DNA from: Flavobacteriales bacterium
GTDB lineage: Bacteria; Bacteroidota; Bacteroidia; Flavobacteriales_D; Crocinitomicaceae
Direction of reading: 5' to 3'
DNA: 62,917 bases
NCBI GenBank assembly: GCA_947475275.1
Contig: CANJNE010000003.1
Location: forward strand, 1 to 62,917
The notes beneath the pieces were generated by a model. It saw only the letters and a list, made by a program, of their open reading frames with translations, had not been told where the DNA came from and ran no database searches. Positions 16,808-24,161 of the stretch are shown in pieces. Each line of letters starts with the position of its first letter. The first letter of the stretch is position 1. A program made the translations under genes and the position numbers.

Positions 16808-17998
16808 TTATTCAGCCGTTTCCGTAATTGCTTCCAAAATAATATTAGCGGCCTTTTGTATTTCTTCCTCCGTAATATTCAAAGGTGGTGAAAGTCTAAA
16901 ACTATATGGGTGGGAAAGGAACCAAAAGCTAATCAAGCCTTTTTCCATGCATTTATTTACAACTTTTTCTACCCGTTCTGCTGACAGCATATCGAAGGCG
17001 AACATCAAACCTATTCTCCTTGATTCAAGAATTTCTTTACTTGTATTGATTTTATCTTGAAGTAACTTTCCAAGTCTTTCAACTTCATCAAAGTCAATTT
17101 CTGAGGAAAGAACTTCTAGAAAAGCTCCTGCACTTGCACATATTAATGGATGTCCACCAAAAGTTGTTATATGACCCAACATCGGGTTGAATGTAAATTG
17201 TTTAAGATGTTTTTCATTAGCGACTAAAGCTCCAATTGGCAAACCGCCTCCCAATGCTTTTCCCAATGTAAGAACATCAGGTATGATGTTAAAATGTTCA
17301 AAGGCGAATATTTTTCCTGTTCGACCCATTCCACATTGAATTTCGTCAAAAATAAGCAAACATCCAACTTCATTGCATTTAGCACGAAGTTTGGTTATGA
17401 ATTCAAAATCGGGAATTCTAACTCCCGCATCACCTTGAATGGTTTCAATGATTACTCCTGCAGTCTTTGATGAGATTTGCTCAAGTTGTTCGATACAATT
17501 AAATTGTAAAAATCGAATATCAGGTAACAAAGGTCTATAAGCCTGTTTTTTTATTTCATTTCCCGATATACTCAATGAACCATGGGTGCTTCCATGATAG
17601 GATCCCCTAAATGAAACTATTTCTGTTCTTCCCGTAACGCGTTTTGCCAATTTTATGGCAGCTTCATTTGCTTCCGTACCTGAATTTACGGGATATACTG
17701 CATTAAGAGATTTTGGAAGGATTGACGATAATTGTTTGGCGAAATTCATTTGAGTATCCTGAATGAATTCACCATAAACCATTACATGCAAGTGTTTTTC
17801 AATTTGCTGATGCAGGGCTTCTTTAATTTTTGGATGTCCATGTCCAAGGTTAGAAACAGCAACACCAGAAATCATATCCATGTATGATTTTCCTTTTTTA
17901 TCAAAGATATAAATGCCTTCGGCACGGTCAACCTCTAAAAGGAAAGGAAAGGGAGAAGTTTGCCCTAGAATTTGTTTGAACCATTCAGCACTGTTCAT
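16808..17998 (-). CDS. Class III pyridoxal-phosphate aminotransferase (acetylornithine/ornithine aminotransferase family)
   Basis: 396 residues, typical of class III aminotransferases. Motifs in order: the N-terminal GVAVSNLGHGHP, the PLP phosphate-binding NSGTEANEAAIKLA at about 105-118, FDEIQCGMGRTGK at 217-229 with Asp218 for the pyridine nitrogen, and the Schiff-base Lys247 in TLGKALGGG. The family moves amino groups from omega-amino acids such as ornithine, acetylornithine or GABA. The substrate cannot be fixed from sequence, and no other arginine genes are nearby. It follows the C-terminal transketolase gene by 25 bp on the same strand. Confidence 0.85.
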   Translation of the reverse strand: MNSAEWFKQILGQTSPFPFLLEVDRAEGIYIFDKKGKSYMDMISGVAVSNLGHGHPKIKEALHQQIEKHLHVMVYGEFIQDTQMNFAKQLSSILPKSLNAVYPVNSGTEANEAAIKLAKRVTGRTEIVSFRGSYHGSTHGSLSISGNEIKKQAYRPLLPDIRFLQFNCIEQLEQISSKTAGVIIETIQGDAGVRIPDFEFITKLRAKCNEVGCLLIFDEIQCGMGRTGKIFAFEHFNIIPDVLTLGKALGGGLPIGALVANEKHLKQFTFNPMLGHITTFGGHPLICASAGAFLEVLSSEIDFDEVERLGKLLQDKINTSKEILESRRIGLMFAFDMLSAERVEKVVNKCMEKGLISFWFLSHPYSFRLSPPLNITEEEIQKAANIILEAITETAE

Positions 17999-18023: not shown

Positions 18024-18980
18024 TTAATTCTTTCTTGCAATTGCCTTCAAACTGGCATCAACAATATTCGCTGTATCAATACCATATTTGGTCATTAATT
18101 CCATAGGTGTGCCACTTTCTCCAAATGAATCGTTAACTGCAACAAACTCTTGAGGTACAAGAAGATTTTGCACAAGTACTTGAGCAACGGCTTCTCCTAG
18201 ACCACCATTCTTCATGTGTTCCTCTGCTGTAACAACACATCCGGTTTTAGCAACAGATTTCAAAATAGCTTCTTCGTCTAAAGGTTTTATCGTATGCATA
18301 TTGATCAAATCCACCGAAATGCCTTTTTCAGAAAGAATTCTTGCAGCTTCTATAGATTTCCAAACCAAATGGCCGCATGCGATTATCGTTACATCAGAAC
18401 CTTCAAGGAGAACATCGGCCTTACCAATGATAAAAGGAGTATCAGGTTTAATAAATATCGGCATAACAGGACGTCCAAATCTCAAATATACTGGACCAAC
18501 ATGATCAGCAATTGCAATAGTTGCTTGTTTTGTTTGGTTGAAATCAGCAGGAACAATTACCGTCATATTGGGCAACATTCTCATCATTCCAATATCTTCA
18601 AGAATTTGATGTGTCGCTCCATCCTCTCCAAGAGTTAATCCAGCATGTGAAGCACATATTTTTACATTTTTTTGAGAATATGCTATCGACTGTCTTATTT
18701 GATCATATACCCTTCCAGTAGAAAAGTTAGCGAAAGTCCCAGTGTAGGGAATTTTTCCACCGATTGTCATACCGGCCGCTAAGCCCATCATGTTTGCTTC
18801 TGCTATTCCAACTTGAAAAAACTTATCAGGATTTTCTTTTTGGAAGGTGTCCATTTTCAAAGAGCCTGTCAGATCTGCACACAAGGCAACAACATTATCA
18901 TTTTTTCTACCTAATTCAGCCAAACCCTCACCGAATCCTGAGCGTGTATCCTTGTTTCCAAAAATTTCAAAATCTTTCAT
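18024..18980 (-). CDS. Transketolase C-terminal subunit (split transketolase)
   Basis: 318 residues from ATG 18980; the frame is open further upstream, but that part overlaps the VWA gene and is not like transketolase. It has the pyrimidine-binding domain with the conserved THQ motif (LGEDGATHQ, including the catalytic Glu) followed by the C-terminal domain ([24 protein letters not shown]). Together with the N-terminal subunit encoded at 20343-21185 it forms a full transketolase of the two-gene type. The enzyme transfers two-carbon units in the pentose phosphate pathway. The ATG is 1 bp after the stop of the intervening VWA gene, so translation is probably coupled. Confidence 0.88.
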
Positions 18981-18981
18981 G

Positions 18982-20337
18982 TTAAAAATATATTGTTGTT
19001 GTTTTATTTGACGAAATAGTGAATTCATTAACAGCTGTTTCTTTCGAATCAAGTTTATTTAAATAGCGGTAAACGACTTTGTATTTCCCTGGTTGTAATT
19101 GAAGCATACCACTTTTATTTGAAGTGTCTAGATTACAAACCCACTCCTCCTTATTCTCAGAATCTGTTAAAAATAATTGTGCAACAACATCTCCTTTTGT
19201 CGAAAATGAAAGGTTGCCAGGAGCAAGTACGTCTATAGTGGTGTTTGTACTTTGGGTAATATCAACGGTAATGGTTTTCCTAGGTAATGTTAAGAGTTCT
19301 ACATCGTATTTTCCGACTATGTACTTGTCGGTTTGATTTACTTGTTGTGCATTTATAGTTTCACATGAACCATTTTGCATAACTCTGCACATCAAAGGAT
19401 AAGTCTTTGTTGCATTGCTGTATTTTAGCTTTAAAAAGCCTTGTGGAGCATCCAATATGATAGTATTGTGAACATTTTTGTATATAACAATATCCTTTTT
19501 TTCAAGTTTTGGAATGGTGTTTACTACCAAGTCATATTTTATTTTCGGATCTATAATGAGCGTATCTGGGTTGCCAAATTTATTTATAGTATGCACAAAG
19601 GTATATTTGAGATTGCTTGTGCCAGATTCATAAAGAAACATCGTAACATTTGTTTCATTAGGTTTCTTATTGATATCATTCAAATTGATTTGAACGGTTG
19701 TATTGTAAACAATTTTAGATAAAACATTGGATAAAACGGACTGAAGCGCATTTCTATTTTCAGCATCCGAATAGTTACCTATACAATTAAATTTCTCCAA
19801 GTAGGATAAATCCATGCCTAATCCAATAACAAAAGGTTTAACCTTCACCCCTTTGTCTTTAAGTTTTTTAGCAATTACACAAGGGTCATTATCACAAGCT
19901 TCAAGTCCATCCGTAATTAGAATAATAATATTTCTCGAATTTGTGTCGGGAAAATCTGAAGCTGCTGCTTCCAGAGATCTTGCTATCGGTGTAGTACCTT
20001 TGGCGGTGATAGATTTAATTCTTGTTTGTATTTCCCCATAGTTGTCGCTAGCAAAAGGAACCTCCAATTTCGTGTCATTACAATCTTGATAATCTGCGGT
20101 GATAGGGGATTGATGGCCATAAACTCGAAGCGCAACTTCTAGATTCGGGGTTCCTTTTAAACTGTCTATTGATTTGGAGAGTAAATCCTTGGCTGCCTCA
20201 ATTCTTGTTTCACCTACACTCCATTTTTCGTTCATACTATTGGAGGCGTCCAAAATGAATAAAATTCTTGTGAGTTGCTCTTGTGCAATTGAACTCGAAG
20301 CGAGAATTAAAGATAATATGAAGAGTAGGACTTTCAA
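18982..20337 (-). CDS. Secreted von Willebrand factor A domain protein
   Basis: 451 residues from a TTG start at 20337; no earlier in-frame ATG exists. A signal peptide (ending SSSIAQ, about residue 19) marks it as exported. The VWA domain spans about 22-190 with an intact metal-ion-dependent adhesion site: Asp30, Ser32, Ser34, Thr115/116 and Asp143 ([11 protein letters not shown]). The remaining 260 residues are beta-rich, probably immunoglobulin-like repeats, with no enzyme motif that I can see. The gene sits between the two transketolase genes, 5 bp after one and 1 bp before the other. Such VWA proteins bind metal and protein ligands; its partner is unknown. Confidence 0.85.
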
Positions 20338-20342
20338 GTTAT

Positions 20343-21185
20343 TTAATAATCTCCTAAAGTTTCTTCTAATTGATTAAGTGCTAATTCCAACTGCTCTGTA
20401 TTCGGTGCTGAACCATGCCATTTGTGTGTCCCCATCATATAATCAACACCCATTCCCATTTCAGTTTTCATTATTATCACAACAGGTTTTCCTTCACCAC
20501 ATAAACTTTGTGCTTTAGTTATAGTGTTTTTCATATCCAAGAAATTGTGGCCGTCCATTTTTAGAACCATCCAACCAAAGGCCTTCCATTTGCCTTCTAA
20601 ATCTCCCAAACTTAGCACGTCATCAACGTCGCCATCAATTTGCCTGCCATTAAAATCGATTACGGCAATAATGTTGTCTACTTTTTGAGCTGCAGCATAC
20701 ATGGCTGCCTCCCAAATCTGACCCTCCTGCAATTCTCCGTCACCGTGAAGGGTAAATACGTAAGAATGATCGTTGTTTAATTTTTTCGCTTGCGCCGCAC
20801 CTATTCCAACCGAAAGACCTTGACCAAGCGATCCAGATGCCATTCTAATACCAGGTAATTTTTTATCTGTAGAGGGGTGTCCTTGAAGTTTAGATGAAAG
20901 TTTTCTAAAAGTTGCAAGATCACTTACTGGAAAATAACCTGAACGCGATAAAACACTATACCAAACAGGAGATATGTGACCGTTTGAAAGAAAGAATAAA
21001 TCTTCATCCTTTCCATCCATCGTGAAATTTTCAGGGTCGTGCTTTAAGATATCGAAGTATAGCAAGGTTAGAAAATCTGCGCAACCCAATGAGCCACCTG
21101 GATGACCTGAGTTCACAGCTGCTACCATTCTAACGATGTCTCGTCTAACTTGCGATGCGATATGCTTAAGTTTTTCTATTTCCAT
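20343..21185 (-). CDS. Transketolase N-terminal subunit (split transketolase)
   Basis: 280 residues from ATG 21185, chosen because similarity begins at MEIEKLKHIASQVRR; the frame stays open to 21278. It carries the N-terminal TPP-binding domain: the AVNSGHPGGSLGCADFL opening, the LSNGHISPVWY strand, SLGQGLSVGIGAA, and the thiamine-diphosphate motif GDGELQEGQ...DFNGRQ (GDG with the metal-binding Asn). It lacks the C-terminal half, which is encoded separately after the VWA gene. The two-gene transketolase is common in Bacteroidota and archaea; a gene in between is not usual. Confidence 0.9.
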   Translation of the reverse strand: MEIEKLKHIASQVRRDIVRMVAAVNSGHPGGSLGCADFLTLLYFDILKHDPENFTMDGKDEDLFFLSNGHISPVWYSVLSRSGYFPVSDLATFRKLSSKLQGHPSTDKKLPGIRMASGSLGQGLSVGIGAAQAKKLNNDHSYVFTLHGDGELQEGQIWEAAMYAAAQKVDNIIAVIDFNGRQIDGDVDDVLSLGDLEGKWKAFGWMVLKMDGHNFLDMKNTITKAQSLCGEGKPVVIIMKTEMGMGVDYMMGTHKWHGSAPNTEQLELALNQLEETLGDY

Positions 21186-21719: not shown

Positions 21720-24161
21720 ATGAAGCATTTGTTATTCTTAACAGCGTTTTGTCTTTCATTTGGTAAGCTATATTCACAAATGGTAACTATGGGAGATCCA
21801 GGTTTTCCTCAAAATAATCCTGCGAACTGTAATACTTTTGGTGTCAGTTCAAATAATTTCCAAGATCCGGGTGCTGGAGGTAATTACACTCCTAATTATA
21901 ACGATACAATTACGTTTTGTCCAGATCTTAACCTAGGTACTAAAATGTCCATCACAATGGCCATAAATGCAGGCTATACCTTTAACGTTGATGCATCAGA
22001 TTCAATTTATGTGTTTGACGGACCTAATACTTCAGCGCCACTGTTAGGTGTTCATAATTCTGCTACCGACCCAACCGGTTTTACTCATCAAGCATCATGG
22101 AATAATCCGAGTGGGTGTTTGACGATTGTTTTTGTATCCAATGGTTCCGTTGAAGGAACAGGTTGGTTGGCGAATGTGCAATGTGGAAATCAATTTCAAC
22201 CATTCGAACCACATATTGAAGCTTTTATAAACGGAACAGGATCAAATGCCTTAAATCCTATTGATACAGGTTTTGTTGATGTTTGTTATGGCGATAGTAT
22301 CCTTTTTGTTGCCAAACCTTTATTTCCTTATGCTGAAGAAACAACTGGATATGGGTATTCTCAAAATGTGAATTCAACCATAGATTTTGAATGGAACATA
22401 TCGGATGGTGGTACATATGCTAACAACGATTCTATTTGGTTTACTCCTCCTGCAAGATCTGGGTATTTGGTAGACTTGAAAATAACAGATATTTTCCCTC
22501 AATCGGAACGCATGCTTTGTAAAGTTAGGGTTTCACAGCTTCCAGATTTTACGGGTACCGGCCCCTTAGAAGATACTGTTTGTCTTGGAGAATCAACTAC
22601 ACTATTGGGTGGCGTTACACCTACAGATACGGTAGGGGTAACGATTCCAGAAGGCACGTTTGAATTGGGGGGTGCTTATGCAGGTTTAACATACTTACCA
22701 GATGGATCTGGACAAGTTTATTCCACATCAATTCCTATTGCTGGTTTCCCGAGTGGTTCTACAATTACCAGCGATCAATCTTTAAATGAGGTTTGTATCA
22801 CTATAGAGCATTCCTATCTTGGTGATTTAGAACTTTGGTTGCAGTGCCCATCTGGTCAAATAGTACCTTTGGTCAATTCGTATAGTCCAGGCAATATACC
22901 TGGAGGAAACAGTGGAGGGGGAACTTTTCTTGGGCAACCATACGATGATGCAGGAGGAGGTGGTGCCGGCATTGGATGGGAATATTGTTTCAGCTCTGTT
23001 TTTAATACAATTAATGGTTCAATGACCCAAAATCTTGGCAATACTGTTCCTGTGCCTGGAGTTCCAACCAATGTTCCGCCATTGACAGCTGGTAACTCAA
23101 TAGATAATTCAGTAGTGTATCAACCTGAAGTGTCATTTAACAGTTTTGTTGGATGCCCTGTAAATGGTAACTGGACAATTTTTGTTCAAGATAATCTTGG
23201 TATCGATGATGGTTACATATTCGAATGGGGTCTATTTTTCGATGGGTCTTACTTTCCTGGCCTAGGTGGTTATCAAACGGTTGTTGCGAATGACTTCTGG
23301 TCAAGTGATCCTACTATTGTTAGTGGTCAGAATGATACCTTAATTGTTGTCCAACCCAATCTTGTCGGAAATTACAACTACACCTATAATGTTGTAGATA
23401 ATTTTGGTTGTCCTTATGATACGACAGTAACGCTTTTCGTTCAACCGCTTCCGGAAATATTTTCAGATACGTTGATTTGTGATTTTTCTTTTCAAGTAAC
23501 AGGTACCACAGCAGTTGATGGTGGTGTATGGACTGCAGCTGATACATCAATATATTTCTCACAATATACAGCAAACAATCCTATAATATCAACAGCTGCT
23601 CCTGGAACCTATACGGTCTCCTTTACAGATAATGAATGCGATATTACCCTTTCGAGTGATATAACATTCCCTTCTTTGGCTTATACTCAAGTGCTGGATA
23701 CAACGATATGCGCTGGGGCATCCGTAACCTTATATGCTCAGCAAAATCCAACCGTTACTGATTTTCTTTGGAGTACCGGGGAAACAGGGCCATCAATTAC
23801 TGTAAATGCTGAAGGAGATTATATCGTCACGGGTTCCAATTTATGTTACGATCATATCGATACGGCTACGGTTGATTTCAAGATTTGTGAAATTGAAGCG
23901 CCGAATATTATTTCGCTTTCATCGCTTGTGGGTAACGAATTGTTTTTTGTTAATGCCGAGGGCGTGGCTCAATTCAATTGTGTGATTTTAAACCGTTGGG
24001 GAAATAAAATATACGAGTTCAATGATCCTTCAGGTTCTTGGGACGGAAAAACACAGAACGGTACTTTAGTTGAAGAAGGCACCTATTTTTATATTATTAG
24101 AGCTACATTCGAGGGCGGTGAAGAAGTTGAAAAGCAAGGCTTCGTTCAGGTCAGGTATTAA
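21720..24161 (+). CDS. T9SS-secreted protein with CUB-like and P-domain modules and a gliding-type C-terminal domain
   Basis: 813 residues. A signal peptide is followed by a CUB-like domain at about 30-155 (DSIYVFDGPNTSAPLLG, CLTIVFVSNGS), a PKD/Ig-like part, then a proprotein-convertase P-domain at about 340-505 (VCITIEHSYLGDLELWLQCP, NGNWTIFVQDN). More Ig-like segments follow, then a C-terminal CHU_C/gliding-motility sorting domain in the last 75 residues (ILNRWGNKIYEF, SWDGKTQNG, GTYFYIIRA). That last domain directs export by the type IX system and, often, attachment to the cell surface. No protease catalytic triad is visible. Likely an adhesin or surface-associated protein. Confidence 0.88.
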   Translation: MKHLLFLTAFCLSFGKLYSQMVTMGDPGFPQNNPANCNTFGVSSNNFQDPGAGGNYTPNYNDTITFCPDLNLGTKMSITMAINAGYTFNVDASDSIYVFDGPNTSAPLLGVHNSATDPTGFTHQASWNNPSGCLTIVFVSNGSVEGTGWLANVQCGNQFQPFEPHIEAFINGTGSNALNPIDTGFVDVCYGDSILFVAKPLFPYAEETTGYGYSQNVNSTIDFEWNISDGGTYANNDSIWFTPPARSGYLVDLKITDIFPQSERMLCKVRVSQLPDFTGTGPLEDTVCLGESTTLLGGVTPTDTVGVTIPEGTFELGGAYAGLTYLPDGSGQVYSTSIPIAGFPSGSTITSDQSLNEVCITIEHSYLGDLELWLQCPSGQIVPLVNSYSPGNIPGGNSGGGTFLGQPYDDAGGGGAGIGWEYCFSSVFNTINGSMTQNLGNTVPVPGVPTNVPPLTAGNSIDNSVVYQPEVSFNSFVGCPVNGNWTIFVQDNLGIDDGYIFEWGLFFDGSYFPGLGGYQTVVANDFWSSDPTIVSGQNDTLIVVQPNLVGNYNYTYNVVDNFGCPYDTTVTLFVQPLPEIFSDTLICDFSFQVTGTTAVDGGVWTAADTSIYFSQYTANNPIISTAAPGTYTVSFTDNECDITLSSDITFPSLAYTQVLDTTICAGASVTLYAQQNPTVTDFLWSTGETGPSITVNAEGDYIVTGSNLCYDHIDTATVDFKICEIEAPNIISLSSLVGNELFFVNAEGVAQFNCVILNRWGNKIYEFNDPSGSWDGKTQNGTLVEEGTYFYIIRATFEGGEEVEKQGFVQVRY

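What the first reader, a model, noticed from the sequence alone, without database searches (positions are those of the whole stretch)
18024..21185. A secreted von Willebrand A protein gene sits between the two halves of a split transketolase
Sequence: the N-terminal subunit (20343-21185), a VWA protein with signal peptide and intact metal site (18982-20337) and the C-terminal subunit (18024-18980) follow each other with gaps of 5 bp and 1 bp. The VWA gene starts with TTG, so its translation may rely on ribosomes ending on the first gene. Knowledge: two-gene transketolases are common in Bacteroidota, and the halves are normally adjacent. A secreted protein translated between two parts of one cytoplasmic enzyme is odd, and suggests either a recent insertion or a deliberate coupling of expression levels.
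Basis: partly seen in the sequence, partly recalled or inferred. Interest (0 to 1): 0.6.

Follow-up and report, generated by a model that had tools for sequence, protein, structure and literature searches.

The report
Secreted-protein gene inside split transketolase operon
A gene for an exported von Willebrand A protein sits between the two halves of a metabolic enzyme, and this odd order is not a recent accident: most sampled families of the same bacterial class keep it, although the exported protein can also live without the enzyme beside it.

Summary
"Recent insertion" is refuted. In the same family (Crocinitomicaceae by named relatives) VWA lies directly 3' of the N half in 60 of 60 genomes paired from printed rows. 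It follows N in 35 of 40 loci from 40 other families of the class, and in 114 of the 148 class genomes with a printed N row. Gene trees agree, VWA dN/dS is 0.02-0.08 in 18 pairs, and loci without VWA look like scattered losses. "Coupled expression" is partly supported: in 87 of 101 family-type loci the first VWA start is within 10 nt of the N stop (often TAATTG, TAATG or TAGTG), but elsewhere the gap is mostly longer. VWA is an exported metal-site protein. Four genomes with a one-gene transketolase keep it behind tsaD, so it is not a transketolase part. Best reading: an ancient operon in which an envelope protein rides at low level on a housekeeping mRNA. Its molecular role is unknown.

The parts
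20343..21185 (-). Transketolase N-terminal subunit gene (TPP-binding half), 280 aa, ATG start, TAA stop
   Evidence: PF00456 E 4.2e-50; NCBIfam transketolase models match in their N part, below the cut-offs set for whole enzymes
18982..20337 (-). Exported VWA protein gene, 451 aa, TTG start 5 nt after the N-half stop; signal peptide, VWA/MIDAS domain (about residues 22-205), then a mostly beta region (about 213-451)
18024..18980 (-). Transketolase C-terminal subunit gene (pyrimidine-binding plus C domains), 318 aa, ATG start 1 nt after the VWA stop
   Evidence: PF02779 and PF02780
20335..20345 (-). N-stop / VWA-start junction: TAA, 5 nt, TTG. In relatives often TAATTG, TAATG or TAGTG
18978..18984 (-). 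VWA-stop / C-start junction: TAA, 1 nt, ATG. V-C gap is -2 to 12 nt in the family-type loci where it could be read
16808..17998 (-). Class III aminotransferase gene 25 nt downstream of the C half, same strand; found near the trio in many family loci, in 4 of 40 loci of other families of the class

Best explanation
SHOWN: N half - VWA - C half is an old gene order of this class (Bacteroidia; the class name is recalled), inherited vertically, under strong purifying selection in the pairs tested, and lost several times. VWA encodes a protein with a signal peptide, as a rule no lipobox, a metal-site VWA domain and invariant cysteines, so probably periplasmic. INFERRED: the three genes are one transcript read from upstream of the N half. 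In Crocinitomicaceae VWA is translated mainly by ribosomes that finish the N half and restart at the abutting weak start (TTG, or overlapping ATG or GTG), so VWA is made in small amounts that follow the output of a housekeeping gene. The C half starts on its own ATG and keeps pace with the N half. INFERRED, weakly: VWA works in the envelope as a metal-dependent binding or scaffold protein independent of transketolase. Its place reflects a favourable, constitutive expression slot; in two families with a one-gene transketolase the slot is behind tsaD instead.
For: Order conserved: 60/60 paired family genomes, 29/29 loci, 16/20 loci from 11 other families of the order and 35/40 loci from 40 further families of the class, 114/123 class genomes with both genes printed and 114/148 with N printed, 71/80 named loci complete N-V-C. 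The four family genomes without VWA also have no N-half match. Trees: N-V distance correlation 0.805 against 0.737 for N-C, 130 loci, maximum of 500 permutations 0.181. VWA dN/dS 0.020-0.079 in 18 pairs. N-C adjacent tips are scattered in the N tree, and one genus holds genomes with and without VWA. Junction: 27 TTG at 0 nt, 16 ATG at -1, 14 GTG at -1, 87/101 within 10 nt. VWA codon bias is weaker than N in 62/71 and than C in 65/71 family loci; dS is higher than N in 16/18 pairs. Export: hydrophobic segment in 171/171 usable loci, small-x-small-Q after it in 126, as the Bacteroidetes Q-rule expects (PMC5837995, abstract). tsaD context.
Against: No expression data. Outside the family the first in-frame VWA start is more than 10 nt after the N stop in 48 of 71 loci, and re-initiation is nearly abolished at about 20 nt in two tested organisms (PMC10666635, abstract). 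In the window itself codon bias does not single out VWA as the weak gene (Nc 50.3 for N, 46.6 for VWA, 42.4 for C). The more structured VWA start (87/94 loci) is explained by base composition. If C depended on VWA translation, a weak VWA start would upset the 1:1 ratio of the halves; independent C initiation is assumed, not shown. 25 of 148 class genomes with a printed N row have no printed VWA and 9 have it elsewhere. VWA is much rarer in genomes with one-gene-like transketolase (4 of 18) than in the rest (135 of 179), which could mean a real link.
Confidence: 0.66

Rival explanations
1. Frozen accident (not fully exclusive of the best explanation): the order was set once in an ancestor and persists only because breaking a tight operon costs expression of its genes. 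There is no advantage in VWA being with transketolase and no useful coupling.
For: VWA stands away from both halves in 11 of the 20 loci that were fetched because VWA lay away from N, was a second copy, or had no printed N row (four of the 11 behind tsaD, two of them second copies). Loci without VWA can have the halves adjacent (5 of 60; no VWA elsewhere in the five genomes concerned). Junction spacing outside the family is loose.
Against: Neighbours of the window outside the trio are almost gone at class level (aminotransferase 4/40, upstream genes 0-1/40, with short flanks fetched) while VWA stays (35/40). In the family the tight junction is kept with three different start codons.
Confidence: 0.4
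2. VWA is functionally tied to transketolase or the pentose phosphate pathway, for example an envelope protein whose amount must follow sugar-phosphate flux, or a partner of an exported form of the enzyme.
For: Co-occurrence: VWA in 4 of 18 genomes with a one-gene-like N hit against 135 of the other 179 in the class sample; very long retention of linkage; when one half is absent from the site, VWA is sometimes with N and sometimes with C.
Against: Signal peptide in all usable loci separates it from a cytosolic enzyme. Four one-gene-transketolase genomes keep VWA next to tsaD. The co-occurrence is confounded by kinship. No enzyme or sugar-binding domain was reported for VWA.
Confidence: 0.15
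3. Recent insertion of a secreted-protein gene into a two-gene operon in this lineage.
For: None beyond the oddness of the order.
Against:: the order is class-wide and vertically inherited.
Confidence: 0.01
4. VWA is a VWA aerotolerance (Bat) type or type IX cargo protein that merely lies here.
For: BatB of Bacteroides thetaiotaomicron is the second best solved relative by sequence (1.6e-7) and Foldseek rank 5.
Against: The BatB sequence match covers residues 18-175 only. The region after the VWA domain is modelled as mostly beta, with no long helix (no membrane predictor was run). No type IX sorting domain was reported by NCBIfam for VWA or by Pfam for 48 family members.
Confidence: 0.05

Closest known systems
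Two-gene (split) transketolase
   Same: Separate N (TPP-binding) and C (pyrimidine plus C domain) genes; full-length transketolase models cover both parts
   Different: Here the two genes are separated by an exported-protein gene; halves touching each other directly is the minority state in the loci read (5 of 60)
VWA/MIDAS exported proteins: BatB (3ibs), mussel PTMP1 (4cn8), pilus adhesins SpaC and RrgA
   Same: VWA domain with intact metal site, exported, followed by beta domains as in adhesins
   Different: Own C-terminal mostly-beta region with no consistent Pfam family; fold similarity over the whole chain is low (TMq 0.36 or less in the 50 rows shown). Plasmid relatives: 0 of 88 records reach 80% coverage, and the 15 rows shown stop at or before residue 260
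Translational coupling by termination-reinitiation of overlapping genes (PMC10666635, abstract read; PMC6728339, search listing and start of abstract only)
   Same: Stop/start overlaps of 1 nt and abutting codons at the N-VWA junction in the family
   Different: The partners are not known subunits of one complex and by prediction go to different compartments; TTG starts are frequent; spacing is loose in the rest of the class

Membership tests
Transketolase, two-gene form | N and C parts both present as separate complete genes matching transketolase domains | tested here: met
Transketolase, two-gene form | Both subunits needed for transketolase activity | not testable with these tools
   needs enzyme assay
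VWA domain with MIDAS | DxSxS, T and D metal-site residues | tested here: met
   invariant D30, S32, S34, T116, D143 in 50 sequences; motif definition recalled
Sec/SPI-exported Bacteroidota protein | Signal peptide with Q right after the cleavage site (Q-rule) | tested here: met
   window SIA-Q; hydrophobic segment 171/171 usable of 174 loci, strict small-x-small-Q 126/171, lipobox-like 1; no signal-peptide predictor was run; rule from PMC5837995 abstract
Type IX secretion cargo | C-terminal sorting domain | tested here: not met
   none in VWA or, by Pfam, in 48 family members
Bat aerotolerance proteins | Gene lies in a bat/moxR cluster | tested here: not met
   neighbours are transketolase halves, tsaD or other genes (the other neighbours judged by eye)
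Bat aerotolerance proteins | Membrane-anchored VWA protein | tested here: inconclusive
   no long helix after the VWA domain in the model; no membrane predictor run
Termination-reinitiation coupled gene pair | Stop/start overlap or distance of a few nt | tested here: met
   87 of 101 family-type loci within 10 nt, window 5 nt; more than 10 nt in 48 of 71 other loci
Termination-reinitiation coupled gene pair | Downstream translation falls when upstream translation is stopped | not testable with these tools
   needs reporter experiment

The most novel reading that the evidence does not exclude
A class-wide operon, not described in the papers searched, in which an envelope VWA protein is dosed by the translation of a central-carbon enzyme: the weak start abutting the N-half stop makes VWA output a fixed small fraction of transketolase output, linking cell-surface build-up to pentose phosphate capacity, while the C half initiates independently so that the enzyme stays balanced.
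Probability: 0.25. Interest if true: 0.72.

Novelty: new variant of a known kind. Interest (0 to 1): 0.52.

Why it matters
A gene order that survives across dozens of families normally points to a shared complex or pathway, yet here the members are predicted to go to different compartments. It singles out a conserved envelope protein with no known function in a large bacterial class, and gives a natural test of how operons keep two enzyme halves balanced around an unrelated, weakly started gene.

Tried and rejected
Recent insertion: rejected. Type IX secretion as an explanation of VWA distribution: the SprA marker is present in 191 of 197 class genomes, so it has no power to discriminate. Special mRNA structure at the VWA start: the difference vanishes against shuffles. 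Bacteroidota-type promoter pattern (recalled consensus) in the window: 6 matches against 7.7 expected, none at this operon. Sigma-70 and terminator scans uninformative. A Deinococcus paper naming both words (PMC5552922, passages read) deals with separate genes of a radiation regulon and is taken as a coincidence. Plasmid relatives: none covers 80% of the query; one annotated neighbourhood (Deinococcus deserti) shows no transketolase, and another record had no annotation. Literature: the searches listed no paper that by title and start of abstract treats this pairing; only parts of the longer listings are shown, and the library holds open-licence papers only.

Limits of the counts. The printed rows of the genome search are capped and favour genomes whose N half or VWA is close to the query, so lineages with weaker matches are under-sampled: 148 of 193 genomes with an N match and 138 of 139 with a VWA match could be used. 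In one search I paired by hand the 60 family genomes with both rows printed. The 40 class loci are one each from 40 of the families that had printed rows. One-gene transketolase was confirmed by open frames of 663-701 aa in seven genomes; of the 18 in the count, the rest were classed by weak N-half E-values alone, and one of them, G389, has both a 293-aa and a 677-aa frame. The test drops 4 genomes without any N match. In one search, 171 of the 174 loci were used. Loci cut by a contig end were kept in the counts and are named as such.

Full report
Observation. Domains are Transketolase_N, VWA, and Transket_pyr plus Transketolase_C. TTG is the only possible start for the VWA frame. It is the only strong transketolase N half in the genome.

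Is it recent? No. The VWA protein was searched in 150 genomes of the family: 146 match at E 1e-3, though one of these (G089, E 9.8e-4) is not convincing and a few are fragments. The 29 best-matching relatives read as loci all have N, VWA and C in that order; L029 is cut at a contig end within C, and in L023 the N match is broken. Pairing the printed rows of two searches by hand gave 60 family genomes, and in 60 of 60 VWA is directly 3' of N, 1-110 nt apart by alignment ends. The four family genomes with no VWA match also have no N match, so the locus is probably just missing from those assemblies. By named loci the family is Crocinitomicaceae (Fluviicola, Brumimicrobium, Lishizhenia). Of the best 80 named loci, 71 are N-V-C with both gaps under 400 nt, 5 touch a contig end, 3 have N-V without C within 400 nt (in one of them, L206, C follows after an extra gene), and 1 has V-C without N.

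How deep? Twenty loci from 11 other families of the order: VWA follows N in 16, and N-C are adjacent without VWA in 4. Forty loci, one from each of 40 further families of the class: VWA follows N on the same strand in 35, after an insert in two of them (L088, L093) and truncated in one (L092). The order N-V-C holds in 31 of the 40, four of these with 0.5-0.7 kb between V and C. The other five are one N-C pair (L114) and four with N alone (L091, L110, L123, L124). In the class sample of 197 genomes, 139 hold VWA at E 1e-40, one of them (G355) over the VWA part only. N rows were printed for 148 genomes: 114 have VWA 3' of N on the same strand within 3 kb (111 within 400 nt), 9 have VWA elsewhere, and 25 have no printed VWA. 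In the phylum sample 8 of 296 match, and the two outside the class match in the VWA part only; how many of the 296 lie outside the class was not shown. So the full-length protein looks class-specific, within these samples.

Vertical inheritance and loss. Distance matrices of N, VWA and C trees for 130 loci correlate at 0.81 (N-V), 0.74 (N-C) and 0.73 (V-C); 500 permutations of N-V never exceed 0.18. N-C (5) and N-only (4) tips are scattered over an N tree of 70 loci. Ten genomes with adjacent halves, or from the same groups, have no VWA at E 1e-10, while G166, of the same genus as two of them, has it 98 nt from N. This reads as loss, not gain. In 18 close pairs dN/dS of VWA is 0.020-0.079, close to N (0.017-0.065) and C (0-0.053). 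At class level the window's flanking genes are nearly gone while VWA stays, though the flanks fetched were short.

What the protein is. All 171 usable loci of 174 have a hydrophobic segment before the VWA domain, 126 with a strict small-x-small-Q site, which fits the Bacteroidetes Q-rule (PMC5837995, abstract). One locus has a lipobox-like match. Metal-site residues and cysteines C86, C148, C153 and C185 are invariant in 50 sequences. The model (mean pLDDT 84.9, pTM 0.60) has a VWA domain and a mostly beta C-terminal part. Fold matches are VWA proteins and adhesins, with TMq at most 0.36 in the rows shown. Pfam finds nothing consistent in the C-terminal part.

Is it tied to transketolase? Evidence both ways. 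Against: in four genomes of two families whose only N-half match is in a one-gene transketolase, VWA sits behind a tsaD gene. tsaD was confirmed by Pfam and NCBIfam in two of them and judged by eye in the other two; taking the longest frame, VWA overlaps it by 4 nt in L126 and L128. Elsewhere VWA stands alone, and tandem or second copies exist. For: VWA is in 4 of 18 genomes with a one-gene-like N hit and 135 of the other 179, though kinship confounds this.

Coupling. In 101 distinct loci of the family type (VWA at least 50% identical to the window's), the first in-frame VWA start abuts or overlaps the N stop as TTG at 0 nt (27), ATG at -1 (16) or GTG at -1 (14). It is within 10 nt in 87, and in 42 every available start is TTG. 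N starts are ATG in 81 of 81 family-type loci where the start could be read (before duplicates were removed). The first start need not be the real one. In the other families the first start is more than 10 nt away in 48 of 71 loci. Re-initiation dies off at about 20 nt in E. coli and Haloferax (PMC10666635, abstract), so class-wide coupling of translation is not supported; co-transcription is the likely common ground. VWA has weaker codon bias than N in 62/71 and C in 65/71 family loci, and in 48/64 and 45/64 of the others, which suits lower expression; the window's own N half is an exception. The VWA start is more structured than the C start in 87/94 loci, but composition explains it.

Verdict. 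The insertion reading is wrong; the coupling reading is partly right. The arrangement is an old operon order with an envelope protein of unknown function; no paper on it appeared in the listings. The order and its age are shown; co-transcription, low output and envelope function are inferred.

Noticed in passing
L125-L128 (G341, G374, G403, G429): VWA gene sits right behind tsaD in four genomes of two families that have a one-gene transketolase (tsaD confirmed by family search in L125 and L126, by eye in the others).
   Followed up: partly
L129 (also G342, G375): Two VWA genes in tandem; in L129 they lie directly before the C half, with the N half on another contig.
   Followed up: partly
L143, L144 and other genomes of family f51: A second, diverged VWA copy away from transketolase.
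   Followed up: no
L088, L093, L094, L097, L116, L206: Extra genes inside the trio: by eye and recall (no family search) a DUF1016-like nuclease, a toxin-antitoxin-like pair on the other strand, a GxxExxY-like protein, response regulators and a GIY-YIG-like protein.
   Followed up: no
L023 (G111): N-half match stops at residue 228 and the VWA frame runs on upstream into it, giving one 672-aa open frame; a frameshift or sequencing error in that assembly.
   Followed up: no
L092 (G290): VWA frame ends early and the genome has two partial VWA matches; a broken gene or a sequencing error.
   Followed up: no
window 21720-24161: Divergent upstream gene for an 813-aa protein with a P-domain and a CHU_C type IX sorting domain, kept upstream in many family loci.
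   Followed up: partly
L146, L152, L153, L162, L163, L168, L209: Record titles naming Actinomyces, Kuenenia, Chryseobacterium, Chitinophaga or Saccharospirillaceae carry loci very like those of Crocinitomicaceae or other Flavobacteriales; the MAG titles look mislabelled.
   Followed up: no
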